This document shows positions 23,673 through 62,793 of a DNA stretch of 64,000 bases, piece by piece. The notes under the pieces are model-generated. The model saw nothing but the letters and a program-made list of their open reading frames with translations. It had not been told where the DNA came from and did no database searches. The stretch's first letter is position 1. Each line of letters starts with the position of its first letter. The DNA is from a virus, in IMG/VR virus record IMGVR_UViG_3300025732_000021, positions 1 to 64,000 of that record; one strand, 5' to 3'. The position numbers and the translations under genes were made by a program.

Positions 23673-24392
23673 TTATATCACAGACACATATATTGAATTC
23701 ATTAAAACTGATGAGTCGTAGTCAGTTCTAATTTGAGGTACTGCCCCAGAATTCCACATAGAGTTGTCTTCAATAAAAAAATGTTGAGTAACATACATAT
23801 TATAGACATATTGGTATTTTAATGACGCAACAAACTGTGAAATTTCAGTAGTAGATTTAGGAAAAAATGTTCTAATCCAAACCTCTGTATTATTGCTATA
23901 AGTTGTAAGTTCAAAGTTATATGTAACAAATACTTGAGATCCTATCTTTAAACCGTGAAAATTTAGCATTCTTTGTTCTGCATTCCAAAGACTTGTGCAT
24001 TCTTCTGGTAAATATTTTTCATTTGTATTACTACCTTTTGAGTCTACCCAAACGCTTACCCAGCCATCATCTCCTTGATTGACTCCAAGCCTAATATCTT
24101 TTCTATTTTGATTAAAATATGCACCCCATCCAGCCTGTTGTCCAGAAGAAGACAAAGAACTCTTTCCGTCTTTTCCAGATGGTCCTTTTTCGCCTTTAGG
24201 ACCCTGAATGCCGTCTTTTCCAGGAACACCCTGAGGTCCAGGTACACCTTGTGGCCCTTGAGGCCCCATTGGACCAGGAACAGGAACATAGTTAATTAAA
24301 ATATCAGAATTAGTGTTTTGAGTTTCTACAACCTGTGCAGCATAACTTGATTTTTTATTTCCTGGAAAGTCCATTGATTTTGATACGGGCAT
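23673..24392 (-). CDS. collagen-like tail protein
   Basis: 239 residues. Thirteen Gly-X-Y triplets (residues ~38-76) form a collagen-like rod, common in phage tail fibres and shafts. The C-terminal ~150 residues are a beta-rich domain (GWGAYFNQNRKDIRLGVNQG) that would sit at the rod tip. Confidence 0.78.
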   Translation of the reverse strand: MPVSKSMDFPGNKKSSYAAQVVETQNTNSDILINYVPVPGPMGPQGPQGVPGPQGVPGKDGIQGPKGEKGPSGKDGKSSLSSSGQQAGWGAYFNQNRKDIRLGVNQGDDGWVSVWVDSKGSNTNEKYLPEECTSLWNAEQRMLNFHGLKIGSQVFVTYNFELTTYSNNTEVWIRTFFPKSTTEISQFVASLKYQYVYNMYVTQHFFIEDNSMWNSGAVPQIRTDYDSSVLMNSIYVSVI

Positions 24393-46661: not shown

Positions 46662-46883
46662 ATGAAACCAGGAATAATTGTAATGGTTATTAGTGATGAT
46701 CATAATGACAAAAAGGCTGCAGAAGTATTATCTGTGGATAATGATTTGTGTACAATAAAAATGTGTGATACTCAAGAAATTATAAAAATGAATCAATCAA
46801 ATTTAAAACGTAAAAAATTATGTGTATGTAATACTTCAAAAAATAAACCATTTTGTGATGGATCTCATTCATTAATGTTTTAG
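46662..46883 (+). CDS. CDGSH-type iron-sulfur protein
   Basis: 73 residues. The C-terminus, CVCNTSKNKPFCDGSH (C54, C56, C65, H69), is an exact CDGSH motif (C-x-C-x2-S/T-x3-P-x-C-D-G-S-H), which binds a redox-active 2Fe-2S cluster. The N-terminal half is a small beta domain with no clear match. AAAGGAG upstream. It may feed electrons to the redox enzymes of this phage; that is inference. Confidence 0.85.
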   Translation: MKPGIIVMVISDDHNDKKAAEVLSVDNDLCTIKMCDTQEIIKMNQSNLKRKKLCVCNTSKNKPFCDGSHSLMF

Positions 46884-47629
46884 TTATAGTTTTTACTTTC
46901 TATTACTATACAAATCTGATCACTCATAATTCTAGTATTAGTATTAAAATATTCTTTTAAATTATCCAATGTATTATGAATAACTTTTTCTGTATCCATA
47001 GTTAAGTTATAACAAAGAGATGCCCATCTGTTTTCCCCTAGTATTTCACATGCTTCTTCTAAAAACTCTGGTATTTCATTATGAAATTCTTGTCCTCTTT
47101 TTACATTTCTAAGCATTATAACCATTGGATAATTGTAGTCTTTTCTTTCTTTTAAGAATTGAATTCTTTCATTTTTTACAAATGGCAAAAAAGATTCAAA
47201 TATAAAATTATGCATAGTTCCAGTAACTGCTACTGCAGCCATAACAACAGAAGGTCCTGGTGTTGATGTCACATGTATTCCTTCAGCAATACATTTTTTA
47301 ACTATCCTTGCTCCTGGGTCTGCTACCCCTGGCATACCTTCATCTGAAATTAAGAATACATCTTCTCCATTTTTTAATAAATCAATTATTTTATTCATGT
47401 TATGAAGTTCGTATGCTTCTCCAGGTTCTCCGCCATCAGAATCATACTCAATGGATATAGTATTGACATTTGGTTTTTGCATTCCAAGTGCGGGCCAAAT
47501 TCTTTCAAATGCCTCTTCTCTTTCTATCACTATATTTTTTGCATTTTGAATATATTTAAATGCTCTTACTGACATATCTTCCCAATTGCCAATAGGCAAT
47601 CCAACTAAATATAATTTTCCAAACGACAT
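46880..47629 (-). CDS. RsmI-like SAM methyltransferase (copy 1)
   Basis: 249 residues of the tetrapyrrole-methylase fold. LYLVGLPIGNWEDMSVRAFK, VFLISDEGMPGVADPGARIV and TSTPGPSVVMAAVAVTGTMH align with motifs of RsmI, which 2'-O-methylates C1402 of 16S rRNA. The C-terminal DNA/RNA-contact part of cellular RsmI is shortened. Start 47629 has TATAAT six nt upstream; the ATG 15 nt earlier lies in the promoter. Confidence 0.85.
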   Translation of the reverse strand: MSFGKLYLVGLPIGNWEDMSVRAFKYIQNAKNIVIEREEAFERIWPALGMQKPNVNTISIEYDSDGGEPGEAYELHNMNKIIDLLKNGEDVFLISDEGMPGVADPGARIVKKCIAEGIHVTSTPGPSVVMAAVAVTGTMHNFIFESFLPFVKNERIQFLKERKDYNYPMVIMLRNVKRGQEFHNEIPEFLEEACEILGENRWASLCYNLTMDTEKVIHNTLDNLKEYFNTNTRIMSDQICIVIESKNYN

Positions 47630-47664
47630 ATATTCATTATACACTATGGTATAATTTTAATATT

Positions 47665-48328: not shown

Positions 48329-48502
48329 ATGGACAATATAGAAGAGTCAATTAAAAATGTTCTTTTTCAAATTGGAAAAGATATAAAGGTACATAAATTA
48401 ATAGATGGTAACTTAATATTAGATATTGATTATGATAAATATACAAAAGAAATAGTAGATATTTGTAATAAACATATAGAAAGAAGAAAAGGTGTTTGGT
48501 AA
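48329..48502 (+). CDS. hypothetical protein (57 aa)
   Basis: MDNIEESIKNVLFQIGKDIK; a short alpha-beta protein, one nt after the oxygenase stop and overlapping the RsmI-like gene after it. Confidence 0.58.
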   Translation: MDNIEESIKNVLFQIGKDIKVHKLIDGNLILDIDYDKYTKEIVDICNKHIERRKGVW

Positions 48503-49253
48503 ATTACATCTAATTGGATCTCCAATTGGCAACATGTTGGATACATCTCAAAGGTTATTAAATGCATTTAATGACGCTAAATATATATGCGTTGAAGATA
48601 TAGATAGATTTAAAGAATATTGTTCTTTTAATAATTTTATATATAATGCAGAACTAATTGATATATGTTTTTCGTTAAACAATAACAGAGAAAACGAAGT
48701 AAAAGAAAGAATAATTTCAATTTTAAAAAATGGCGAGGATGTTTATATAATATCTGATGAAGGTATGCCTGGTCTTGCAGATCCTGGTACTATACTTGTT
48801 GATGAAGCAATTAAAAATGATATACAAATTATAACTACTCCAGGGCCATCTGTTGCTCTTGCTGCAGCATCATTATCCAATATATTAAATAACTTTTTAT
48901 TTGAAGGCTTTATGCACAGCGTAGATGAAGAAAGACATAAAAAGTTTGAATTTTTAAAAATGTCTCCTGTTCCTATGATTTTTTTATTACATAATTCAAA
49001 TCATAGACCAATTGATAAAGAAGATAAAATACACATGCTTCATAATTGTTTTGATCATGATATTTTTATTAATGAATGTATTACATTTTTTGGCGAAGAA
49101 AGAAAAGCAGTTTTTTGTATTGATTTAACTACAGATCATCAAAAAGTAATTCGTAGTACTTTAAAAAATATAAAACAATATATAGATCAAAATAAAATAT
49201 TTGGCAATTTATGCATTGTGGTAGATGGAATAAATAATAATTTATCTATTTAG
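48492..49253 (+). CDS. RsmI-like SAM methyltransferase (copy 2)
   Basis: 253 residues. LHLIGSPIGNMLDTSQRLLN, VYIISDEGMPGLADPGTILV, TTPGPSVALAAASLSNILNN and FLFEGFMHSVDEERHKKFEF follow the RsmI order. More diverged from copy 1 than expected for a recent duplicate. Start is GTG 48492. Both copies end with a similar IVVDG/IVIES strand. Confidence 0.83.
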   Translation: MFGKLHLIGSPIGNMLDTSQRLLNAFNDAKYICVEDIDRFKEYCSFNNFIYNAELIDICFSLNNNRENEVKERIISILKNGEDVYIISDEGMPGLADPGTILVDEAIKNDIQIITTPGPSVALAAASLSNILNNFLFEGFMHSVDEERHKKFEFLKMSPVPMIFLLHNSNHRPIDKEDKIHMLHNCFDHDIFINECITFFGEERKAVFCIDLTTDHQKVIRSTLKNIKQYIDQNKIFGNLCIVVDGINNNLSI

Positions 49254-49398: not shown

Positions 49399-50142
49399 TC
49401 ACCAAATTTCTGTTATTCTTTCTGTTTTTGAAATTATTTTTCCAAAACCTTCAAACAAAGTTTTTTCTACTGGTACACAATTTGGAACCATTTTGCCGTT
49501 TTTTTCTTTCATTCCTCTTTGTACATATCCTTCCCAGCATGGATTTGCTTTATTTACATCCCCGCAGCAATCGCCCTTCATTTCATTGGCTTGACAAACT
49601 GGACATAAATCACAGCACACATTCATATCTTTACATGTAGGACATCCGCAACCATCATATGTACAGGGGTCATTAGACGATTGACCAACTACAGAAATAT
49701 CTTCTTTTATAACTTCAGTCTTGTCCATATTTTCATTTAATTCAAGTGATGGCATTATCATTATATCTTTTGCTTTTGCTCCAACAAAATACTCTGTCTC
49801 TTCAAGTTCGCCATCTTCCATTTCAAATAACTGAATTAAAATAGCAGGATCTTCTGAAGATGCTTCAATAGAATATTCAGATCCTGGCATTCCAAGCATA
49901 CCTTCTGTCATTACGTGAACTACACGACCAACATACATTTCTTCTTCATGTGGGGCCATAACCATATCGCCCTCTTTAACCATGGCCTTACCTATATTTC
50001 CTTCAGATCTATTGATTGCATAAATTTGTCCTGCTGCTTCTTTTTTTGTTTTATGGCAGCCCATGACTTCTCCAGTACTGGTTTTAACTGCAGGGTAACC
50101 AGAACATCCGTGAGATCCTTTAGCACCTACTTTATAAGGCAT
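49399..50142 (-). CDS. Cys-rich protein with phage structural-type termini
   Basis: 247 residues. The start (MPYKVGAKGSHGCSGYPAVK then GCHKTKKEAAGQIYAI) and end (NPCWEGYVQRGMKEKNGKMV then PNCVPVEK) are motifs I associate with actinophage capsid or protease-linked proteins. In the middle is a dense cysteine cluster (CGCPTCKDMNVCCDLCPVCQ), likely metal-binding. The role is unknown. Confidence 0.6.
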   Translation of the reverse strand: MPYKVGAKGSHGCSGYPAVKTSTGEVMGCHKTKKEAAGQIYAINRSEGNIGKAMVKEGDMVMAPHEEEMYVGRVVHVMTEGMLGMPGSEYSIEASSEDPAILIQLFEMEDGELEETEYFVGAKAKDIMIMPSLELNENMDKTEVIKEDISVVGQSSNDPCTYDGCGCPTCKDMNVCCDLCPVCQANEMKGDCCGDVNKANPCWEGYVQRGMKEKNGKMVPNCVPVEKTLFEGFGKIISKTERITEIW

Positions 50143-51352: not shown

Positions 51353-52114
51353 ATGCCATTAACTGAAGAACAAAAACAACTTATATTAGAAAAAGAAAAA
51401 AATCATACAGCAAAACGGACCGTTCCACCTTTTGGATTTAATGAAATAAGAATGTTGCAGGAAGATGAAATTGAAGATCCTTATCAATTAAATCAAGAAC
51501 AATTAAACAACGCAAAGATTTTTATATCTAGAGAAGAATATACAAAGCATCTTAAAAAAGGATTAAATTATATGGAGGTTGGAGTTGCATGGGGATATTA
51601 TTCAGAAATAGTATGTCAAAATGCACAACCATCTTTAATCGATTTAGTATGTAGATATGACCAAGACATGAAGTGCTGGTCATGGAGAAGGTTTGGTGAA
51701 TGTCAATGTAGTCCAGTTAAACATACTTATGATTTTACTGCTGAAGAGTCAGAAAATTTTATAAAAAATAAATTTAAACAATATGGAAATGCAAATACAT
51801 ATAAGGGCGATGCAGAGGAAATACTTCCAAAATTTATTGAGGATGGAAAACTTTATGATTATATTTATATAGACATCCATAATGGTAGAAAAGCAACCAG
51901 AGAAGTACTATCTTGTGCATCAAAATTAATTCCTATTGGCGGTATTATTGGACTAAACGATTATACAATTTATGATGGAATAATAGATAATGTTTTTTAT
52001 GGTACATTTCAAACTGTAAATGAATTTTTATATTTTAATAAAAATTGGTCTGTGGATGCTTTAGCATTACATAAACTAGGCTTTTACGATATTTATTTAA
52101 GGAGGAATAGTTGA
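51353..52114 (+). CDS. SAM-dependent methyltransferase (class I)
   Basis: 253 residues. SAM site LNYMEVGVAWGYYSEIV (~73-88), YKGDAEEILPKF and YDYIYIDIHNG, then IPIGGIIGLNDY, as in the Methyltransf_24 family that often O-methylates sugars or small molecules. TATAAT is six nt before the ATG. The next gene, an SGNH hydrolase, overlaps it, suggesting linked function. Confidence 0.8.
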   Translation: MPLTEEQKQLILEKEKNHTAKRTVPPFGFNEIRMLQEDEIEDPYQLNQEQLNNAKIFISREEYTKHLKKGLNYMEVGVAWGYYSEIVCQNAQPSLIDLVCRYDQDMKCWSWRRFGECQCSPVKHTYDFTAEESENFIKNKFKQYGNANTYKGDAEEILPKFIEDGKLYDYIYIDIHNGRKATREVLSCASKLIPIGGIIGLNDYTIYDGIIDNVFYGTFQTVNEFLYFNKNWSVDALALHKLGFYDIYLRRNS

Positions 52115-52995
52115 GTCTTTCTAAAGAGTATACATTGCCTAAGCATATAAGGTATAACGCAATGGACAGCATATTCAATAATGATTTTGATTTATCTTGG
52201 CATAGGCAATCACAGTCATACCGTGAAACAATTACTAAATCAGAAATAAATACTGGAGTAATTGATGATGGTACAGTTGAATATTTATATAATAAAAACT
52301 TTTTTAGATGTAGCGAATTTACTAAAACTCCATCAAGACCACATATATTGTTTGCTGGATGTTCTCAAACAGAAGGTATTGGAGGAAACTTAAATACTGT
52401 ATGGCCAACAATGTTTTTAAATAAAAGCAATATTGCTGATAAAAGTCTTTATAATTTGGCTAGATCTGGTTGGGGATGGCAAATGATAATATACAATCTA
52501 CATGTTTACGTAGAAAGATATACAAAGCCAGATTATTTATTTATCCTTTTACCTAACATATCTAGAAGATTTGAATTTGATACATATAACAAGGGAGATT
52601 ATTGTTATATGCAACGATATCCAGAAAGCGATTTACCCAAAATTAATGATGTAGGTGATATATCAAAAAATGAATATTTTGTAGAATTAATTAATTTTTC
52701 TGTATTTTGGAAATTCTTTTTACATTACTGTAAAACTAATAACATTAATGTATTATGGTCTACATGGTTTTTTAATGATTTAGAAAATTTAAAAACATTG
52801 AATATGCTTGATGATTCTTATGTTCCTTTAGATTTAAAAGGCCAATCAGAATATGTTGCAGAAATGTATTTATCTGGATGGGAAAAAACAGAGTATGATT
52901 TGAAAAAAAGAGATGGGCATGCTGGAACATTAATTAATATGTATTATGCAGACAGATTTTTAGAAGTAGCAAAGGAGAAATGGAATGTTTTCTAA
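52111..52995 (+). CDS. SGNH-hydrolase-like protein (copy 4)
   Basis: 294 residues. NKNFFRCSEFTKTPSRPHIL leads into LFAGCSQTEGIGG (S85). LARSGWGWQ supplies the oxyanion block and RDGHAGTLINMYYADRFLEV the C-terminal Asp/His region (DGHAG). Start TTG 52111 has a perfect AAGGAGG. The most diverged of the four. Confidence 0.7.
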   Translation: MSLSKEYTLPKHIRYNAMDSIFNNDFDLSWHRQSQSYRETITKSEINTGVIDDGTVEYLYNKNFFRCSEFTKTPSRPHILFAGCSQTEGIGGNLNTVWPTMFLNKSNIADKSLYNLARSGWGWQMIIYNLHVYVERYTKPDYLFILLPNISRRFEFDTYNKGDYCYMQRYPESDLPKINDVGDISKNEYFVELINFSVFWKFFLHYCKTNNINVLWSTWFFNDLENLKTLNMLDDSYVPLDLKGQSEYVAEMYLSGWEKTEYDLKKRDGHAGTLINMYYADRFLEVAKEKWNVF

Positions 52996-53077
52996 ATTAT
53001 ATAGAAAAATAAAAAAGTGGTATTACGTTCGTAAATTAAAAAAACAACTTAAAGAGCCACCAAATTTTATTTACTAG
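52985..53077 (+). CDS. small basic peptide (30 aa)
   Basis: MFSKLYRKIKKWYYVRKLKK then QLKEPPNFIY. AAAGGAG upstream. Amphipathic and strongly positive. Confidence 0.5.
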   Translation: MFSKLYRKIKKWYYVRKLKKQLKEPPNFIY

Positions 53078-53642
53078 TTAAAAAACAACGAAGTGCATAT
53101 TTTTTACCATTAATTATTGAATTAGATCTATGACTATAAGGCCAGTTAGATGGAAAAATTATTAAACTATTTGCTGGCGGTTTTATTTTTATATTAAAGT
53201 GCTCAAATTCTAACTCTCCACCATCATAGTTATCGTTTAAATACGCCAATGCAGCGCCTATTCTAAAGTCTTCACCATTCAAGGTATCAGAATGAAATAT
53301 AATATTGTTATCTACTTCATATTTTAATAATGTTGCAACAGCCATATTAGAAGAATTATTTTGTGAAGAATCTGGGATCATAACATTTATATTATATAAA
53401 GATTGATATACTTCGGTTGTTTCTTTAATTGCTTTTTGAAATTCATCATATATTAATCTAGCATCTATATTGTCTGGATAATCACTTAATTGAATTGCAT
53501 ATGATTTTCTAACAATAGATCCATTTCTATTGTTTATTTTTAATTCAAAAAAATCTGATAAGTTTTTTTCAATAAAGTCTATATAGTTTTTACTAAATAC
53601 ATTTTCAAAAATAACTATTCCTGGTGCTAAAATTTTATACAT
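53067..53642 (-). CDS. 2OG-Fe(II) oxygenase, prolyl-4-hydroxylase type
   Basis: 191 residues. H117-x-D119 (IIFHSDTLN), H171 (PYSHRSN), R185 (KYALRCFL); LAYLNDNYDGGELEFEHFNI and the IKPPANSLIIFPS turn are typical. TATACT is six nt before the ATG. Shares the divergent promoter zone with the sulfotransferase at 53674. Confidence 0.88.
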   Translation of the reverse strand: MYKILAPGIVIFENVFSKNYIDFIEKNLSDFFELKINNRNGSIVRKSYAIQLSDYPDNIDARLIYDEFQKAIKETTEVYQSLYNINVMIPDSSQNNSSNMAVATLLKYEVDNNIIFHSDTLNGEDFRIGAALAYLNDNYDGGELEFEHFNIKIKPPANSLIIFPSNWPYSHRSNSIINGKKYALRCFLTSK

Positions 53643-53673
53643 AATTTAAGTATAGCATATGATACAATAAAGT

Positions 53674-54435
53674 GTGACTATTTTTCATAACCACATTCCA
53701 AGAACATCTGGTGGCGTGATTAATCACTATATTAGTCAAAATAAAAATATATCACAATATATTATTGAGCCAACAGATAAAATAGATCCGAAAAATTTTA
53801 AAGATAAACAATATATTGCTGGGCATATAGGACAACTTCCACAACAATATATAGATAATGTTATCTCTTTTTCTTTTGTAAGAAATCCTAAAGAACAATG
53901 GCTAAGTTGGTTTTGGCTTATGTATAGACAAGGTTTAACTGTAATTGATGGAAAAATAACAGAGTCTAGACTTGGCACACCCCAAGCGTATATGGAAAAG
54001 TTTTTATATGATGATTCTTTTTATCCTGGAACATCAAATATACAATCAAAATTTTTAATGGGATATGTTGACATTGATTTATGGAATAGGGTAGAAGAGC
54101 CTATAGATAAAACACAGTCCAATTGGTGTCTCAAAGAGTACAGTCTTGACAGGAAAGATATAGACGATGCTCTTGATAGATATATTGTTGAAACTGTTGA
54201 AAATAGAAATAATTTAATAGAATTTATTAATACCATTTTTGAAAAAAAATATAATATTGTAAGTGCAATTAGTGATTATGAGTGGTCTGGTCACAATACA
54301 CCAAAACCAAACTATCTTGAATTTGAAATCCCTAAGGCGTGGAGTGAAAGAATAAATGAATTAAACCCAGTAGATTATTACCTTTATGATAGGGTAAAAT
54401 CTAAACAGAAAAAATATGCTATAATGTCATTATGA
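53674..54435 (+). CDS. PAPS-dependent sulfotransferase-like protein (copy 1)
   Basis: 253 residues. HIPRTSGG (7-14) is the 5'-phosphosulfate loop and FSFVRNPKEQWLSWFW (67-82) the 3'-phosphate site. Both are of the Sulfotransfer_2 / carbohydrate sulfotransferase kind, which move sulfate from PAPS to sugars or lipids. GTG start 53674 with TGA-TACAAT five nt upstream: leaderless. Overlaps the next gene (ATGA). Confidence 0.83.
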   Translation: MTIFHNHIPRTSGGVINHYISQNKNISQYIIEPTDKIDPKNFKDKQYIAGHIGQLPQQYIDNVISFSFVRNPKEQWLSWFWLMYRQGLTVIDGKITESRLGTPQAYMEKFLYDDSFYPGTSNIQSKFLMGYVDIDLWNRVEEPIDKTQSNWCLKEYSLDRKDIDDALDRYIVETVENRNNLIEFINTIFEKKYNIVSAISDYEWSGHNTPKPNYLEFEIPKAWSERINELNPVDYYLYDRVKSKQKKYAIMSL

Positions 54436-54662
54436 GTAATTTTGAAATCGGACGTGCTGGTACGGGGACCTGCCGTGAAAGACAATACCCAGTATACAAA
54501 GATGGCGAAAACATTGGATGTTTTTTCCTTCCAAAAGACGCTGCAAATTTTGCTAAAGATGAGCATGGCGCAACAGAAATTACAGTTTTTGATGTTGATA
54601 GTGTAGAGTCAGACGCAAAGTTTGTTATAACATATCAAGATGGAAAATGGATTCTTAAGTGA
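54432..54662 (+). CDS. hypothetical protein, QYP-DGE-GCF family (76 aa)
   Basis: RERQYPVYKDGENIGCFFLP, KDAANFAKDEHGATEITVFD. The next gene encodes a paralogue with the same spacing. Function unknown. Confidence 0.62.
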   Translation: MSNFEIGRAGTGTCRERQYPVYKDGENIGCFFLPKDAANFAKDEHGATEITVFDVDSVESDAKFVITYQDGKWILK

Positions 54663-54910
54663 ATCAAGTTTTTAAAATAGAGAAGTCAGGAAGTTACGGT
54701 TGTCCTGATAACCAATACCCCCTTCTTGTTGATGAAGAGTGTGTTGGATGTTTTGAATATCCAAAAGAAGCAGCAGCAAAAGCAAGGGATCTTGGAGCAA
54801 ATTCTATAGATGCTTTTGATTATACAATGCCAGAAAGTGAAAGTTCAAGACATGCACTTGCTTTAAAACCAGACGGAACATGGTGCCATACTTTTTCAAA
54901 TATGGCTTAA
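54659..54910 (+). CDS. hypothetical protein, QYP-DGE-GCF family (83 aa)
   Basis: CPDNQYPLLVDEECVGCFEY, PKEAAAKARDLGANSIDAFD: tandem duplicate of the preceding gene. GTG start overlapping the stop (GTGA). Confidence 0.62.
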   Translation: MNQVFKIEKSGSYGCPDNQYPLLVDEECVGCFEYPKEAAAKARDLGANSIDAFDYTMPESESSRHALALKPDGTWCHTFSNMA

Positions 54911-54926
54911 TAGAAAGAGAAATTCA

Positions 54927-55625
54927 ATGTACGGAGATCCAAATAAATTACAAAACCAAATAGATAAAATAACAGAAAGTAGAAGCGGTGAACGTTTTTC
55001 TTTCACATCACCTATCCCTGGTCTTCATATTTATGATAATGTTTGGCCAAACTCTATGGATTTTATAAATGAAATAAGAACAGAGGAATATTGGAATAAC
55101 AATTCACATCGTGGTAGCAAACCTTGGATTCGTGAAGACTATTATAATGAATTAAATGGTAAAAAAGCAGAAACATGTTGGGTATGGAATGATCCAAGAT
55201 TTGCAGAACATTTTCAAGAAATTGTAGACTCTTATTTATGGCAGTGGGACTTGGCCCCATTAAGTAGAGAAGCCATGAGAATATCAAGATATGAGCCAGG
55301 TGAGTTTTTCTCTTTACATGCAGACGATTCGTATGGAACGCCAAGAACAGTATCCCTAGTTTATTATCCAAATGATGACTATGACGGAGGAGAATTAGAA
55401 TTTATTCATTTTGGTGTTAAAATTAAACCAAAGGCTGGACAACTATTTTTATTCCCGTCTGCGTATAGTTATATGCATAAAATACATGGCATTACTTCTG
55501 GTATAAGGTATACACTTGTTTCGTTTTTTGCAGAAATTTCAGAAAAAGAAAGACAAACTAGGATGTCTTCTATAGAATTTCCATATACTACTGATCTTCA
55601 ATATCAATTTTCAGATAATGCATAA
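54927..55625 (+). CDS. 2OG-Fe(II) oxygenase, prolyl-4-hydroxylase type
   Basis: 232 residues. H131-x-D133 (SLHADDSYG), H184 or H187 (YMHKIH), R194 (GIRYTLVSFF). LVYYPNDDYDGGELEFIHFG and KPKAGQLFLFPS match the 53.1-kb copy closely. Sits between the two sulfotransferases; stop and next start overlap (TAATG), so hydroxylation and sulfation may act on one target. Confidence 0.88.
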   Translation: MYGDPNKLQNQIDKITESRSGERFSFTSPIPGLHIYDNVWPNSMDFINEIRTEEYWNNNSHRGSKPWIREDYYNELNGKKAETCWVWNDPRFAEHFQEIVDSYLWQWDLAPLSREAMRISRYEPGEFFSLHADDSYGTPRTVSLVYYPNDDYDGGELEFIHFGVKIKPKAGQLFLFPSAYSYMHKIHGITSGIRYTLVSFFAEISEKERQTRMSSIEFPYTTDLQYQFSDNA

Positions 55626-56509
55626 TGACTTTAAAAAAAATAATTAACGACAAAGTTTATTCTGTACATGATGAAATAGAGTGTGAAAAAGGAATATTTC
55701 CAGCATGGATTGTTCAACCTGGATTTTTTTTAAAGGGTGGAGAATTAGTTTATAGAATTGAATGGGAAGATAACGTTCCAGAAAAGTCATTTTATTTTTT
55801 ACATATTCCAAAAACCTCTGGTATGTCTGTGAAAGAAGTATTGCTACATACCTATAAAGATCATAGAATCTATAGTAACTTTTTACAATATTTAGATGAT
55901 AAAGAAATGTTAAAATGTGATTTTATATCAGGTCATTTTGCGTTATATCCAATAGAATTATTTAAAAAACATGAAAAGAAATTATTTACATATACAATAC
56001 TTAGAAATCCAACAGACAGATATATAAGTAATTATTTATATAAAAATGAAAATCCTAGTTTAGAGAAGTTAGAAGAGCATATGTTTGATAATAGAAATGA
56101 TAATATGCAATATAAATATTTAACATGTACTCTCAATATGTCTGATTTAAAAAGATTTTATGATAAATTAGCATCAAAAGAAATTACTTTTGATCAATAT
56201 AAAGAATTTTCGTTATCATATAATGATTTAGTTCGGGTGTATAGCAACATTGATAGTGCTCTTTCAAATATAGATTATATTGAAACTATAGACAATCAAA
56301 ATGATTTATCAAATTTAAATAATTTTTTAGAAAAAAATATTAATATTTCTTTGTCAACAAAAATTAAAGGATATCAAAATACTGGAAGTGAAAAAAATAA
56401 TGAATTTAAAAAAACAATTCCAGATAGTTTTAAAAAATTAATAACAGAAAAACAAAATTTAGATTATGAATTATATGAAAAAGTAAAGATGGGCTACTAC
56501 AAAGAATAG
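55625..56509 (+). CDS. PAPS-dependent sulfotransferase-like protein (copy 2)
   Basis: 294 residues. A ~50-residue N-terminal extension of unknown role, then FLHIPKTSGMSVKEVLL (58-74, 5'-phosphosulfate loop) and TYTILRNPTDRYISNYL (122-138, 3'-phosphate site), as in Sulfotransfer_2. The C-terminal half is Asn/Lys-rich and variable, typical of the acceptor side. Confidence 0.85.
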   Translation: MTLKKIINDKVYSVHDEIECEKGIFPAWIVQPGFFLKGGELVYRIEWEDNVPEKSFYFLHIPKTSGMSVKEVLLHTYKDHRIYSNFLQYLDDKEMLKCDFISGHFALYPIELFKKHEKKLFTYTILRNPTDRYISNYLYKNENPSLEKLEEHMFDNRNDNMQYKYLTCTLNMSDLKRFYDKLASKEITFDQYKEFSLSYNDLVRVYSNIDSALSNIDYIETIDNQNDLSNLNNFLEKNINISLSTKIKGYQNTGSEKNNEFKKTIPDSFKKLITEKQNLDYELYEKVKMGYYKE

Positions 56510-56515
56510 CCCATC
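56488..56515. terminator. bidirectional terminator
   Basis: GATGGGCTA/TAGCCCATC, 9 bp, with T-rich ends both ways; it includes the sulfotransferase stop codon and separates convergent operons. Confidence 0.75.
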
Positions 56516-56522
56516 CCTTTTA

Positions 56523-56942: not shown

Positions 56943-57148
56943 GTTTCTCCTTTGATATTGTTTGGATGATCCATTGGTGTTGGAATGGTCATTAATGTAT
57001 CACACTCACTACACTCTCCATCTAAGAAATACATTCCAACTTCATAGTCAACTGGATCAAATATAACTTTAACCTTTATTATTTTTGATCCACACAAGGG
57101 ACAACAAGCAGAAGGAATGCCTCTTAAATCTAGTTTATTCTGTTTCAT
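56939..57148 (-). CDS. zinc-ribbon protein (69 aa)
   Basis: SACCPLCGSKIIKVKVIFDP then CSECDTLM: two CxxC knuckles. Overlaps the halogenase gene. Confidence 0.7.
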   Translation of the reverse strand: MKQNKLDLRGIPSACCPLCGSKIIKVKVIFDPVDYEVGMYFLDGECSECDTLMTIPTPMDHPNNIKGET

Positions 57149-58679
57149 AAAATTTTTCTTTTAGTATTTCAAAATGCGACTTAGAATTATCTACAATACT
57201 ATCCCAATTTTTCTTTGCCTCTAATCTCTTACTAAAATATTCATCCATTTTAGTTTTTATATCAGAGTTATTAAAGTGCGACATTTTTTCTAATAAACTA
57301 ATATATGTTTTGTGGAAAGGCCTTATGCCAAATCCAGTTTTAATTGTATCAACATTTTTATTTGCCCACTCAACTGATGATTTAAAATAGTTTTCTGGAT
57401 ATTTTTTTGAAGTTATATGCTTCCAATATGGCGTATCTTCTCTTTGAGATAATGCATAATGCATTCCAACAAAATCAAACATTCTTTCAATTCTAGTTTT
57501 TGTCTTATAGTTAAAATTATCTATATCGTATTGTGTTACATGCTCTCTTTCAAGAGCATCAACCAAAGTAAAACAATTTTGATGAGTTAGTAACAATCCA
57601 GTACTTTCTAATGGTTCTAAAAATCCTGCAGATAATCCAATAGCAACTACATTTTTAACCCAAAATCTGTCATAATACCCATTAGTAATTTTTATATTTT
57701 TAAAAGTTAAATTTTTAGATCTATTTGGATCATGAACTACCATTTTGTCTGAATCTAAATAATTTTTATATTCTTCTAATGCATCATCATCTGAAATAAA
57801 TTCATTACAGTATACGTACCCAGAGCCTATTCTATTCCATAAAGGAATATTCCAAATCCACCCATTATTTATAGCAGTACAATTTGTAAAAGTTTGTAAT
57901 TCTTTCTCTTTATCAGTATATGGAATATGTGCAGTCCATGCTCTATTATTTGGAAGGTATTCAGCAGTAGAAATAAATTTTTCTTTCATAAAATTACCCA
58001 AAAGGATACTTTTAAATCCAGAACAATCTATAAATAAGTCAGCATAAACTTTAGTGCCATTGTCTAAAAGTATAGATGTTATACCATTTTCATTTCCATC
58101 AATATCAGTAACTGTACCAAATATTCTATTTACACCCCTGGGGATAGCATAATATTCTGCAAGCCAGTTACCAAGTTTAGTAGCATCCATCTGCAATGCT
58201 AAATCCCTATGAGGCTGATATGGATTCATTGAGTCTATATGATCAATTACAAGTTTGTTTGTTTCCATGCTTTTAGCCTGCGGGAAAAAATATCTTACAT
58301 AATCTTGATCTTCTGTTTTTGGATAAAATGCTTTTTTATAATGCCAATCATCAAGTCCATAATGTGTTATTTCTGGGTCTAAATTGGGGTGTCCAAACGG
58401 ATAATAAAATGTTGGCGAATCTTTAGTTTTAAAGTTAGTAAAACCTATTGCCACTTTATAGGCAGCATTTGTATATTTCATAATGCTTGAATAGTCTAAA
58501 TCTAAAAAATTAAAAAATCCATTTATTTCAAATGTAGTACTTTCTCCTACACCAATAATTGGAATATCTGTGCTTTCAATTAAAGAAATATTTTTTTCTG
58601 GGTATGCTTTTATTAGTGCAGATGCAGTCATCCATCCAGCAGAACCCCCGCCAACTATTACTATTTTATTAATTTGCAT
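57135..58679 (-). CDS. flavin-dependent halogenase (tryptophan halogenase family)
   Basis: 514 residues. FAD site GGGSAGWMTA (10-19); K75 in NAAYKVAIGF fits the catalytic lysine that forms the haloamine; WIWNIP (274-279) is the WxWxIP signature that separates halogenases from monooxygenases; FLEPLEST (353-360) holds the likely Glu. The family uses FADH2, O2 and halide. A related cyanophage enzyme (VirX1) is known to halogenate small aromatics. No flavin reductase is seen here. Overlaps both neighbours. Confidence 0.9.
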   Translation of the reverse strand: MQINKIVIVGGGSAGWMTASALIKAYPEKNISLIESTDIPIIGVGESTTFEINGFFNFLDLDYSSIMKYTNAAYKVAIGFTNFKTKDSPTFYYPFGHPNLDPEITHYGLDDWHYKKAFYPKTEDQDYVRYFFPQAKSMETNKLVIDHIDSMNPYQPHRDLALQMDATKLGNWLAEYYAIPRGVNRIFGTVTDIDGNENGITSILLDNGTKVYADLFIDCSGFKSILLGNFMKEKFISTAEYLPNNRAWTAHIPYTDKEKELQTFTNCTAINNGWIWNIPLWNRIGSGYVYCNEFISDDDALEEYKNYLDSDKMVVHDPNRSKNLTFKNIKITNGYYDRFWVKNVVAIGLSAGFLEPLESTGLLLTHQNCFTLVDALEREHVTQYDIDNFNYKTKTRIERMFDFVGMHYALSQREDTPYWKHITSKKYPENYFKSSVEWANKNVDTIKTGFGIRPFHKTYISLLEKMSHFNNSDIKTKMDEYFSKRLEAKKNWDSIVDNSKSHFEILKEKFYETE

Positions 58680-59888: not shown

Positions 59889-60191
59889 TTATGACAAAAG
59901 GTCTTCTGATTGTTTTGGCGCTGTAATAATAATAGCCTTAGAACCTTCCCAACGAACTCTTCCCTTACATCCAACATTCCATTTTGTCTCACCGTTATGC
60001 TGATTCACAATATCATAAACATATCCATGAATTTCAAATCCACTTGCTAAATTTTCAACTCCATTAATAAAAATTCTCCATACCAAAGGATCTTCTGGTT
60101 GTGCCTTTGTATTAAACCTTACAGTAATTTCATCATATGGTCTAATCCAACGGTCTTTTACTATTTCCCAAATATATTTAATTTTATTCAT
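59889..60191 (-). CDS. hypothetical protein (100 aa)
   Basis: MNKIKYIWEIVKDRWIRPYD, WRIFINGVENLASGFEIHGY: beta-rich, probably a short regulatory or binding domain. Overlaps the APS-kinase fusion gene (ATGA). Confidence 0.6.
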   Translation of the reverse strand: MNKIKYIWEIVKDRWIRPYDEITVRFNTKAQPEDPLVWRIFINGVENLASGFEIHGYVYDIVNQHNGETKWNVGCKGRVRWEGSKAIIITAPKQSEDLLS

Positions 60192-60949
60192 ATTCCCATT
60201 TCCTTACGTTTTTGTGTCGCAGAAATAGCCTGTATTTCTGGAGCAAGTTCAATCTGTTCAATTTTATATCCTACATCACGACCATAAACTATGTTAGTAA
60301 TATTTGGCAAACGTAGCACCATTGCCCCATCCATAAACTCATCTTTTGAAATATATTCTTTAACTTGATCAAATTTAAGCGGATCTTTTGGACTTGTGTT
60401 ATATGTATTGCGTACCCCAAGAAGCACTTGTTTTGTTCTTTTCCCAGCCTCTTCATACAAAGCATGATGGCCTTCATGCCAAGGCTGATATCTACCAAGC
60501 ATTAATGTTGTAGGTGCTGACCAATCGTGTAAATTAAATTGATTAATGATTACCGATGCTTTTTCATTGGCATCCCATTCATGACTAATAAATGCCATAT
60601 CAAAGTTAGATGGCACTTCAAACATTTTATTAGTATCTTCAAATCTACCAGCCTCAATTGTTTCCATATAAACTAAAATATCTGGCTTACCAAATGCTGC
60701 ACGAGTTAATTCTGTAGGACAAACAAAATCAACTACTACTGGTGCAACCCCTTGTTTTGCAATAAGACGAGCCATCTCACCCATTCGTCTTGCCTGCTCA
60801 ATCCTATCTTCATGGCTAAAGCCAAGGTCAGAATTTACGGTAGCACGAACCTCATCCGCATTAAGATGAATAGCATTAATTCGTTCTTTTAATGCTTTTG
60901 CTAACTCTGTCTTACCAGAACCTGGTAATCCTATAATTTGTATAATCAT
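60188..60949 (-). CDS. APS kinase-like / nucleotidyltransferase fusion
   Basis: 253 residues in two domains. Residues 1-~140: P-loop GLPGSGKT (7-14) and LNADEVRATVNSDLGFSHED (29-48), then RRMGEMARLIAKQGV: the APS kinase pattern (makes PAPS from APS and ATP). Residues ~147-253: LMLGRYQPWHEGHHAL with HxGH-type HEGH (158-161) and ISATQKR (242-248), an adenylyl/cytidylyltransferase fold like NadM. Whether the second domain acts on sulfate, NMN or a polyol phosphate is open. Confidence 0.83.
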   Translation of the reverse strand: MIIQIIGLPGSGKTELAKALKERINAIHLNADEVRATVNSDLGFSHEDRIEQARRMGEMARLIAKQGVAPVVVDFVCPTELTRAAFGKPDILVYMETIEAGRFEDTNKMFEVPSNFDMAFISHEWDANEKASVIINQFNLHDWSAPTTLMLGRYQPWHEGHHALYEEAGKRTKQVLLGVRNTYNTSPKDPLKFDQVKEYISKDEFMDGAMVLRLPNITNIVYGRDVGYKIEQIELAPEIQAISATQKRKEMGI

Positions 60950-61154: not shown

Positions 61155-61595
61155 TTATACTCTTCCAATATGATCACTACAGATTCCAGCCATCTGCATA
61201 TTTAAAACATCTGCGGTTGGCATTTCTTGATGAACCAAAATACTTTTTGGTGTAACTGGCATACCAGGGTATGTCCATATATAATGATTAGTAGTTATTG
61301 TAAAATCATCTTCTTGGTGCCAAAACGCATTATAATATTTTGGCATTGATAAAACTAAATCTAAGGCTTCTAAATTTTTACAATGAATCCATAACTTTTT
61401 AATATAAGAATTTAAAAAATATATGTCGATCTCATATGTTGGTTTATCATGTCCTAAATACATTTTATTATTTACAAACCAAAAATCTATTTCAACATTG
61501 TATCCAGCATTTATAGCCTCAGCAATATAATCTGGGGAGTTTTCTCTTGATTCATTTTTACCATATAGATTACCCCTATGTGATATTTTAATCAT
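61155..61595 (-). CDS. GDPD/PI-PLC-like phosphodiesterase family protein
   Basis: 146 residues from ATG 61595 (overlaps the RuBisCO-like stop by 8 bp). ISHRGNLYGKNESRENSPDY has the catalytic-type HRG...EN; NVEIDFWFVNNKMYLGHD has E-x-D and GHD metal or base residues. It is shorter than true glycerophosphodiesterases (~240) but fits a compact family often found in glycan loci. Probably cleaves or moves a phosphodiester; the substrate is not known. Confidence 0.72.
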   Translation of the reverse strand: MIKISHRGNLYGKNESRENSPDYIAEAINAGYNVEIDFWFVNNKMYLGHDKPTYEIDIYFLNSYIKKLWIHCKNLEALDLVLSMPKYYNAFWHQEDDFTITTNHYIWTYPGMPVTPKSILVHQEMPTADVLNMQMAGICSDHIGRV

Positions 61596-62793
61596 TAACA
61601 ATTCCCCACTTTTCTATAGCAGAAATATATTCTGGACCATAGGACTTATCTATAGCCTGCCTCATGGCCATAGTGCCCCCTAAAGTGCCACCAGAATGCC
61701 CGTGGATGGCTCCTCCTACGTTTGCCATATAGTTTATACCAAACCTTCTGCTTATAGCCTCTACAAGGCCAGGATGCATTCCGCAACTTAGCGCTGGCAC
61801 AACATTATTATCATTTAATAAATCTATAGATCTTTTTAAATTATCTTCGTCATCACTTAAATACCCACCCCACATACCAGTATGTATCGTATCTACTCCC
61901 ATTAATGCTGCTAACTTACAAATAACATACCAATCAATTCTAAAATTATGACTAGGATTTGTTAATATCTTATCCCCGCTTTTTTGAAAATGCATATATA
62001 TTGGAAGATCCATTTTTCGTATAGAGTTATATGCTCCAAATCCGCTCCAGAAGTTTACATGTACACCATTACCACCATTTTCATATACTGTTTTTACTCT
62101 ATTTAAAATAGCATGTGGATCAGCATTAATACAATGAGCAAAAACTACCTTTCTTCCAGAATCTGCGATAATGTTAGCAATGTGCTCAACTCTTTCTTCT
62201 AGCCTACAAAATGTTGGGTTAGATAATATTTCATCTTCTTTAATAAAATCAACGCCACCATCAATTAACTCTTTAACTATATATCCTAGTTGTTTAACTG
62301 ATATTCCAGTTTTAGGTTTTACAATACCGCCTAACAATGGCTTATTTTTTTGTCCAGTTAACTCTCTTATTCCAGACATACCAAACTTAGGGCCAAGAAA
62401 ACTCTTTTTTACACTTTCTGGAAATTCAACATCTACCACTCTACATACTTTAAATACATCAATGTCTAATTGTCCACCCATAATCTGACATAAGAAATGC
62501 GAAATACCATCGTTATCCCAATCTGAATTTATTTTTGGAAAACCAATTTTAACAAAACCATTTAGTGCTAATTTTAATTTTTCTTCATCATCATAAATAA
62601 CACATGATGACATTTCAAATATATCATCAGTTTCCCAACTATTTCTTTGTTTTGGATTACCAACACTTTGTCCAATAGCAAGCGCCCATGCAGCATCATT
62701 TAATCTACCATGTGAAGGATTGACTTCTATATAATATGTTACAACTATACATCTTTGTTTTTCAGAGTCGTCTAAGTCTCTATAAAACTTCAT
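61588..62793 (-). CDS. RuBisCO-like protein (RuBisCO large-subunit superfamily)
   Basis: 401 residues, near the length of form IV proteins. LLGGIVKPKTGIS gives K159/K161 (K175/K177 of spinach). GGVDFIKEDEILSNP gives K185, D187, E188 (the carbamate Lys and Mg ligands K201, D203, E204). H268 (IYMH) and H304 (DTIHTG) fit H294 and H327; SCG at 336-338 and GGAIHGHSGG fit the phosphate loops. But R295 is F269 and the loop-6 Lys K334 is Y311, so carboxylation is unlikely. Expected chemistry: Mg-enolate enolisation, isomerisation or decarboxylation of a sugar-acid phosphate. Overlaps both neighbours. Confidence 0.9.
   Translation of the reverse strand: MKFYRDLDDSEKQRCIVVTYYIEVNPSHGRLNDAAWALAIGQSVGNPKQRNSWETDDIFEMSSCVIYDDEEKLKLALNGFVKIGFPKINSDWDNDGISHFLCQIMGGQLDIDVFKVCRVVDVEFPESVKKSFLGPKFGMSGIRELTGQKNKPLLGGIVKPKTGISVKQLGYIVKELIDGGVDFIKEDEILSNPTFCRLEERVEHIANIIADSGRKVVFAHCINADPHAILNRVKTVYENGGNGVHVNFWSGFGAYNSIRKMDLPIYMHFQKSGDKILTNPSHNFRIDWYVICKLAALMGVDTIHTGMWGGYLSDDEDNLKRSIDLLNDNNVVPALSCGMHPGLVEAISRRFGINYMANVGGAIHGHSGGTLGGTMAMRQAIDKSYGPEYISAIEKWGIVND

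What the first reader, a model, noticed from the sequence alone, without database searches (positions are those of the whole stretch)
53067..56509. Interleaved oxygenases and sulfotransferases: a possible hydroxylate-then-sulfate cassette
Two close 2OG oxygenases (53067, 54927) alternate with two PAPS-type sulfotransferases (53674, 55625), with start-stop overlaps between the last two genes. Hydroxylation could create the OH that is then sulfated. The same phage has an APS-kinase-like fusion that could supply PAPS.
Basis: inference. Interest (0 to 1): 0.8.

Follow-up and report, generated by a model that had tools for sequence, protein, structure and literature searches.

The report
Phage hydroxylase and sulfotransferase gene cassette
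A bacterial virus carries two genuine-looking sulfate-adding enzymes packed beside two oxygen-adding enzymes, and a related virus lineage pairs the same kind of sulfate-adding enzyme with a quite different oxygen-adding enzyme, hinting at a viral "add an OH, then sulfate it" decoration toolkit whose target is unknown.

Summary
The genes are real and correctly placed. 2OG1 (53067-53642) and 2OG2 (54927-55625) pass the 2OG-Fe(II) oxygenase cut-off. ST2 (55625-56509) passes Pfam Sulfotransfer_2. ST1 (53674-54435) is its diverged paralogue; its predicted structure best matches heparan-sulfate 2-O-sulfotransferase.

The block has the same order in all six distinct haplotypes found and is under purifying selection. 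Wider comparison splits it. 2OG2 is older: 21 other phage records carry it without this sulfotransferase family. 2OG1, ST1, the two small genes and ST2 are confined to this clade.

The best support for oxygenase-sulfotransferase coupling lies outside the window. In 15 of 15 contigs with a particular phage cytochrome P450, a relative of ST2 sits directly upstream, overlapping by 7 bases. This resembles the mycobacterial CYP128/Stf3 hydroxylate-then-sulfate operon.

The PAPS-supply idea is weak: the "APS-kinase fusion" is a partial kinase joined to an NMN-adenylyltransferase-like domain, and its distribution does not follow the sulfotransferases. The genome is rich in 2OG genes, so adjacency alone is modest evidence (chance 2-3%). 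Sequential hydroxylation and sulfation is plausible but unproven.

The parts
51353..52114 (+). Methyltransferase-like gene (MT24); flanking backbone gene
   Evidence: PF13578 weak, 21.2 bits, below its cut-off of 26.3; neighbour in all cassette loci and upstream of 2OG2 in several outgroups
52111..52995 (+). SGNH-hydrolase-like gene (SGNHc; my own reading of the sequence); flanking backbone gene
   Evidence: No Pfam match; paralogue of 43484 and 44359 by BLASTP
53067..53642 (-). 2OG1: 2OG-Fe(II) oxygenase, divergent from ST1
   Evidence: PF13640 43.1 bits; invariant H117xD119, H171, K181/R185; found only in the ST clade apart from remote 30% hits; PDB neighbours are prolyl 4-hydroxylases
53674..54435 (+). 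ST1: sulfotransferase, PAPS-type motifs HIPRTSGG and RxPxxxWxS
   Evidence: AF2 model mc5c92950be04 and Foldseek match to HS2ST 4ndz
54432..54662 (+). sm1: small protein, paralogue of sm2
   Evidence: shares a domain with the N-terminus of the 49399-50142 protein (hhalign 93.4%, score 37 versus shuffled maximum 14)
54659..54910 (+). sm2: small protein, paralogue of sm1
54927..55625 (+). 2OG2: 2OG-Fe(II) oxygenase, the older, widely conserved member
   Evidence: PF13640 48.4 bits; invariant H131xD133, H184, R194; orthologues at 47-61% in about 20 further records
55625..56509 (+). ST2: sulfotransferase, motifs HIPKTSGMS and ILRxPxxRxxSN
   Evidence: PF03567 36.4 bits, cut-off 22; A2 and A6 alignments
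56485..56518 (.). Stem-loop at the convergent end of ST2 and the 56523 gene; possible end of the operon
   Evidence: terminator-like pattern, 14 pairs; consensus match only
60188..60949 (-). Partial APS-kinase-like domain joined to an NMN-adenylyltransferase-like domain; not a PAPS synthetase
   Evidence: PF01583 58.5 bits over residues 2-85 only; TIGR00455 61 bits, cut-off 138.7; C-terminus NMNAT-like

Best explanation
The locus is a decoration cassette built around an older phage hydroxylase. 2OG2 belongs to the ancestral gene order MT24-SGNH-2OG2-56523. In this clade a block 2OG1/ST1/sm1/sm2 arrived upstream of it and ST2 arrived directly downstream. ST1 and ST2 transfer sulfate, most likely from host PAPS, to hydroxyl groups. 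The likeliest working is that each ST is matched to a neighbouring oxygenase (ST2 with 2OG2, ST1 with 2OG1), the oxygenase installing the hydroxyl on a shared acceptor that is then sulfated. The acceptor is probably a surface glycan, lipid or virion protein. Shown: the genes, families, motif conservation, gene order and purifying selection. Inferred: the order of arrival, PAPS use, order of reaction, shared acceptor, host PAPS.
For: Pfam matches for three of the four enzymes. ST1 by homology and fold. Invariant motif residues. Same order in six haplotypes. 2OG1 found only in the ST clade. dN/dS well below 1. Relatives of ST2 lie directly upstream of a P450 in 15 of 15 contigs, with a 7-base overlap, and the P450 keeps ExxR and the heme-Cys motif. 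So members of one ST family are paired with two unrelated oxygenase folds. Precedent: CYP128A1 hydroxylates menaquinone-9 and Stf3 of the same operon then sulfates it (PMC7404182).
Against: 2OG2 exists without this ST family in 21 records. 2OG genes are so common here that adjacency is 2-3% by chance. Other ST types in related phages mostly do not sit beside a 2OG gene. 2OG1 is on the other strand. No substrate is known.
Confidence: 0.45

Rival explanations
1. The four enzymes are independent tailoring genes that accumulated in an AT-rich accessory island. Neighbours share location and perhaps the general theme of surface or virion decoration, but each acts on its own substrate.
For: 2OG2 is ST-independent in 21 records. 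14 of 167 ORFs are 2OG-like. Assorted ST-domain genes occur in 14 of 20 searched 2OG2-bearing records, mostly away from any 2OG gene. The island is 29-32% G+C against 33-39% in most of the rest of the window.
Against: 2OG1, ST1, sm1, sm2 and ST2 travel together. The ST-P450 pair is invariant in 15 of 15 contigs.
Confidence: 0.38
2. The enzymes modify phage proteins: the small proteins sm1 and sm2 encoded between them, or virion proteins such as the collagen-like one at 23673-24392.
For: sm1 and sm2 share a domain with the N-terminus of the 49399-50142 protein, which PHROGs link weakly to a head maturation protease (E 0.009). The oxygenases are closest in PDB to prolyl and PKHD-type hydroxylases. 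A 39-residue Gly-X-Y stretch is present.
Against: The best structural match of ST1 (HS2ST) acts on carbohydrate. sm1 and sm2 were not seen beside the P450-linked ST.
Confidence: 0.12
3. The ST-like proteins use another 3'-phosphonucleotide donor, made by the kinase-nucleotidyltransferase fusion, instead of PAPS.
For: The fusion combines an APS-kinase-like domain with a nucleotidyltransferase-like domain, and no other PAPS pathway gene was found in the phage.
Against: The fusion occurs without these STs in 12 of 21 records and was not found in two ST-carrying contigs. It also occurs in Salvovirus phages.
Confidence: 0.04

Closest known systems
CYP128A1 / Stf3 operon of Mycobacterium (sulfomenaquinone)
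   Same: An oxygenase gene beside a sulfotransferase gene; hydroxylation followed by sulfation reported (PMC7404182)
   Different: A P450, not a 2OG enzyme as in the window (the sister phage lineage does use a P450); no sequence kinship to Stf3 was tested; chromosomal, not phage
Sulfotransfer_2 family (HS2ST, carbohydrate sulfotransferases; PF03567)
   Same: ST2 passes the cut-off; ST1 resembles HS2ST in fold; PAPS motifs kept
   Different: ST1 is too diverged for Pfam; substrate unknown; phage-encoded
PHROG_3347 phage galactose-3-O-sulfotransferase family
   Same: Both STs match weakly (E 1.5e-5 and 1.6e-8)
   Different: Low scores; no match in 50,697 named phage records by tblastn
Phage 2OG-Fe(II) oxygenases (PHROG_61)
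   Same: 2OG1 and 2OG2 match strongly (E 2e-21 and 7e-28); relatives common in cyanophages
   Different: Paired here with sulfotransferases

Membership tests
2OG-FeII_Oxy_3 (PF13640) | Profile score over curated cut-off | tested here: met
   43.1 and 48.4 bits against 27
2OG-FeII_Oxy_3 (PF13640) | HxD...H facial triad plus basic 2OG-binding residue | tested here: met
   invariant in all six orthologues of each
Sulfotransfer_2 (PF03567) | Profile score over curated cut-off, ST2 | tested here: met
   36.4 bits against 22
Sulfotransfer_2 (PF03567) | Profile score over curated cut-off, ST1 | tested here: not met
   no Pfam match; ST1 is filed only as a sulfotransferase-superfamily protein through ST2 homology and fold
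PAPS-dependent sulfotransferase superfamily | 5'-PSB loop and 3'-PB Arg/Ser motifs conserved | tested here: met
   HIPRTSGG / HIPKTSG and RxP...S invariant
PAPS-dependent sulfotransferase superfamily | Sulfotransferase fold | tested here: met
   ST1 model best matches HS2ST, E 1.7e-4, TM 0.57; the nine matches with E below 0.001 are all sulfotransferases
PAPS-dependent sulfotransferase superfamily | Binds PAPS and transfers sulfate | not testable with these tools
   needs biochemistry
Adenylyl-sulfate kinase (fusion at 60188) | Equivalog score and full-length domain | tested here: not met
   TIGR00455 61 bits against 138.7; only residues 2-85 align. PF01583 alone is over its cut-off
PAPS synthetase (APS kinase + ATP sulfurylase) | ATP sulfurylase domain | tested here: not met
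   C-terminus is NMNAT-like; PF01747 absent from the record
Oxygenase-sulfotransferase operon of the CYP128/Stf3 kind | Adjacent, co-oriented oxygenase and sulfotransferase genes | tested here: met
   2OG2-ST2 overlap; P450-ST in 15 of 15 contigs of the sister lineage. 2OG1-ST1 are adjacent but divergent
Oxygenase-sulfotransferase operon of the CYP128/Stf3 kind | Sequential hydroxylation and sulfation of one acceptor | not testable with these tools
   no substrate known

The most novel reading that the evidence does not exclude
Some actinophage-like viruses carry a modular two-step decoration system in which a sulfotransferase family is coupled to interchangeable oxygenases (2OG-Fe(II) in one lineage, cytochrome P450 in another) to hydroxylate and then sulfate a surface or virion molecule during infection.
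Probability: 0.35. Interest if true: 0.75.

Novelty: new variant of a known kind. Interest (0 to 1): 0.58.

Why it matters
[quoted passage not shown] A conserved oxygenase-sulfotransferase pairing, seen with two unrelated oxygenase folds, gives a concrete and testable hypothesis: look for molecules that gain +16 and then +80 Da during infection. It also points to phage P450 operons as a route for modifying host lipids or glycans, which could bear on receptor masking or superinfection.

Tried and rejected
PDB sequence searches with single ST sequences and ST profiles found no relatives; the fold search was needed. AF2 of the kinase fusion failed (pLDDT 32), so its fold was not judged. A genome-contig scan with the ST profile gave only four remote cellular hits, in Acidimicrobiales, Anaerolineae, Hydrogenimonas and another Actinomycetota, and no host. 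A search for a host through a surface-protein-like phage ORF in 397 genomes of that phylum gave nothing, so host PAPS capacity is untested. Rejected: the PAPS-synthetase reading of the fusion; a four-gene operon (2OG1 is antisense). I first read the outgroup phages as having no sulfotransferases, then found that 14 of 20 searched carry other ST families; the statement was narrowed to this ST family. No Rfam match lies in 50-58 kb. Promoter-like matches are no more than chance.

Full report
What is there. The window is 64 kb of a 121,867-base virus record. Its portal protein is 46% identical to those of Streptomyces phages, so it is an actinophage-like virus; the host was not identified. At the reported place lie, in order, 2OG1 (minus strand), ST1, sm1, sm2, 2OG2 and ST2. 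The five + strand genes overlap or lie within 17 bases of each other, and 2OG2/ST2 overlap as TAATG. 2OG1 is divergent from ST1 across 31 bases. A stem-loop closes the + strand run at 56485-56518.

Both oxygenases pass PF13640 and keep HxD...H and a basic residue in every orthologue. ST2 passes PF03567. ST1 has no Pfam match, but it is a paralogue of ST2 (hhalign 97.4%), keeps the two nucleotide-binding motifs, and its AF2 model (pLDDT 79, pTM 0.81) has heparan-sulfate 2-O-sulfotransferase as best PDB match. The motif names are from general knowledge of the superfamily; the invariance is from the alignments. All six genes are under purifying selection (dN/dS 0.02-0.43).

Conservation. The whole block, in the same order and orientation, is in every close relative found: six distinct haplotypes, the window included, with ST1 at 72-83% identity to the window's in the other five. 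These are near relatives, so this alone is a weak test. The wider test is more telling. 2OG1 is confined to this clade, apart from remote hits of about 30%. 2OG2 has orthologues at 47-61% in many further phages, usually next to the 56523 gene and in several beside MT24 and SGNHc. In 21 such records, including ones of 99-125 kb, no member of this ST family was found. So 2OG2 is old and ST-independent, and the STs are probably later arrivals around it.

An independent pairing. Distant relatives of ST2 (30% identity) sit directly upstream of a cytochrome P450 (PF00067 E 3e-70). Scanning with the P450 itself gave 15 contigs, all 15 with the ST upstream and overlapping by 7 bases. ST2 and the P450-linked STs group together to the exclusion of ST1 (support 100/100, unrooted). 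One sulfotransferase family is thus coupled to two unrelated oxygenase folds. The mycobacterial CYP128A1/Stf3 operon does hydroxylation then sulfation (PMC7404182).

Limits. The genome has 14 2OG-like genes in 167 ORFs. Pfam confirms several of them, while others have no match over a Pfam cut-off, so the number is an upper estimate. By chance two genes would both touch one in 2-3% of draws. Other ST families occur in 14 of 20 searched relatives and are mostly not beside a 2OG gene. Many records are fragments and some are near-duplicates, so the counts are not independent.

PAPS supply. The fusion at 60188-60949 resembles APS kinase over residues 2-85 only, far below the equivalog cut-off, and its C-terminus resembles NMN adenylyltransferase. 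No ATP sulfurylase or PAPS-reductase-family gene was found. The fusion is in 12 of 21 records without this ST family and was not found in two ST-carrying contigs (at the matching place in L010/L011 the gene is missing). It is also in Salvovirus phages of Xanthomonas and Clavibacter. It does not look like a dedicated PAPS source; the host is the likelier one (inference).

The small genes. sm1 and sm2 share a short domain with the N-terminus of the 49399-50142 protein (hhalign score 37, shuffled maximum 14), a protein that PHROGs link weakly to a head maturation protease. This leaves open that the cassette works on virion-associated proteins.

Verdict. Real enzymes, a real clade-conserved cassette, a partly wrong description (strand, missing genes, PAPS supply) and an interesting but unproven coupling hypothesis, strengthened by the P450 lineage.

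Noticed in passing
window 61588-62793 (-): RuBisCO-like protein in a phage: PF00016 132 bits, TIGR03326 form III 198 bits (below the equivalog cut-off of 497), with a KxDE motif (IKEDE). Neighbours are a cupin (62780), an NTP-transferase (63085) and a GDPD-like ORF (61155; my reading, no Pfam match); conserved in relatives L010 and L012.
   Followed up: partly
L022-L029 and L113-L127: Phage cytochrome P450 (about 475 aa, complete heme motif) in an operon with a sulfotransferase in 15 of 15 contigs; some also carry a second sulfotransferase next to a methyltransferase and a 2OG gene.
   Followed up: partly
window 57135-58679 (-): Tryptophan halogenase-type gene (PF04820, 346 bits), conserved next to the cassette in all relatives.
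   Followed up: no
whole record G000: Up to 14 2OG-Fe(II) oxygenase-like genes in one phage genome; not all are confirmed by Pfam.
   Followed up: partly
window 46880-47644 (-), 48492-49253 (+); L001:5718-6437 (-): Two or three paralogous ORFs that look like tetrapyrrole (RsmI-type) methylases; by eye, and BLASTP between the first two only.
   Followed up: no
L001:4261-4956 (-): Apparently degenerate relative of the kinase-nucleotidyltransferase fusion: the HxGH-like site is altered. By eye only.
   Followed up: no
window 23673-24392 (-): 39-residue collagen-like Gly-X-Y stretch in an ORF; a possible prolyl-hydroxylase substrate.
   Followed up: no
L042:5235-5942 (-), L046:5233-5940 (-), L058:5234-5941 (-): ORF divergent from 2OG2 with a sulfotransferase-like PPRCGTH start, but no Pfam match (L042 tested); possibly another unrecognised sulfotransferase type beside 2OG2.
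   Followed up: partly
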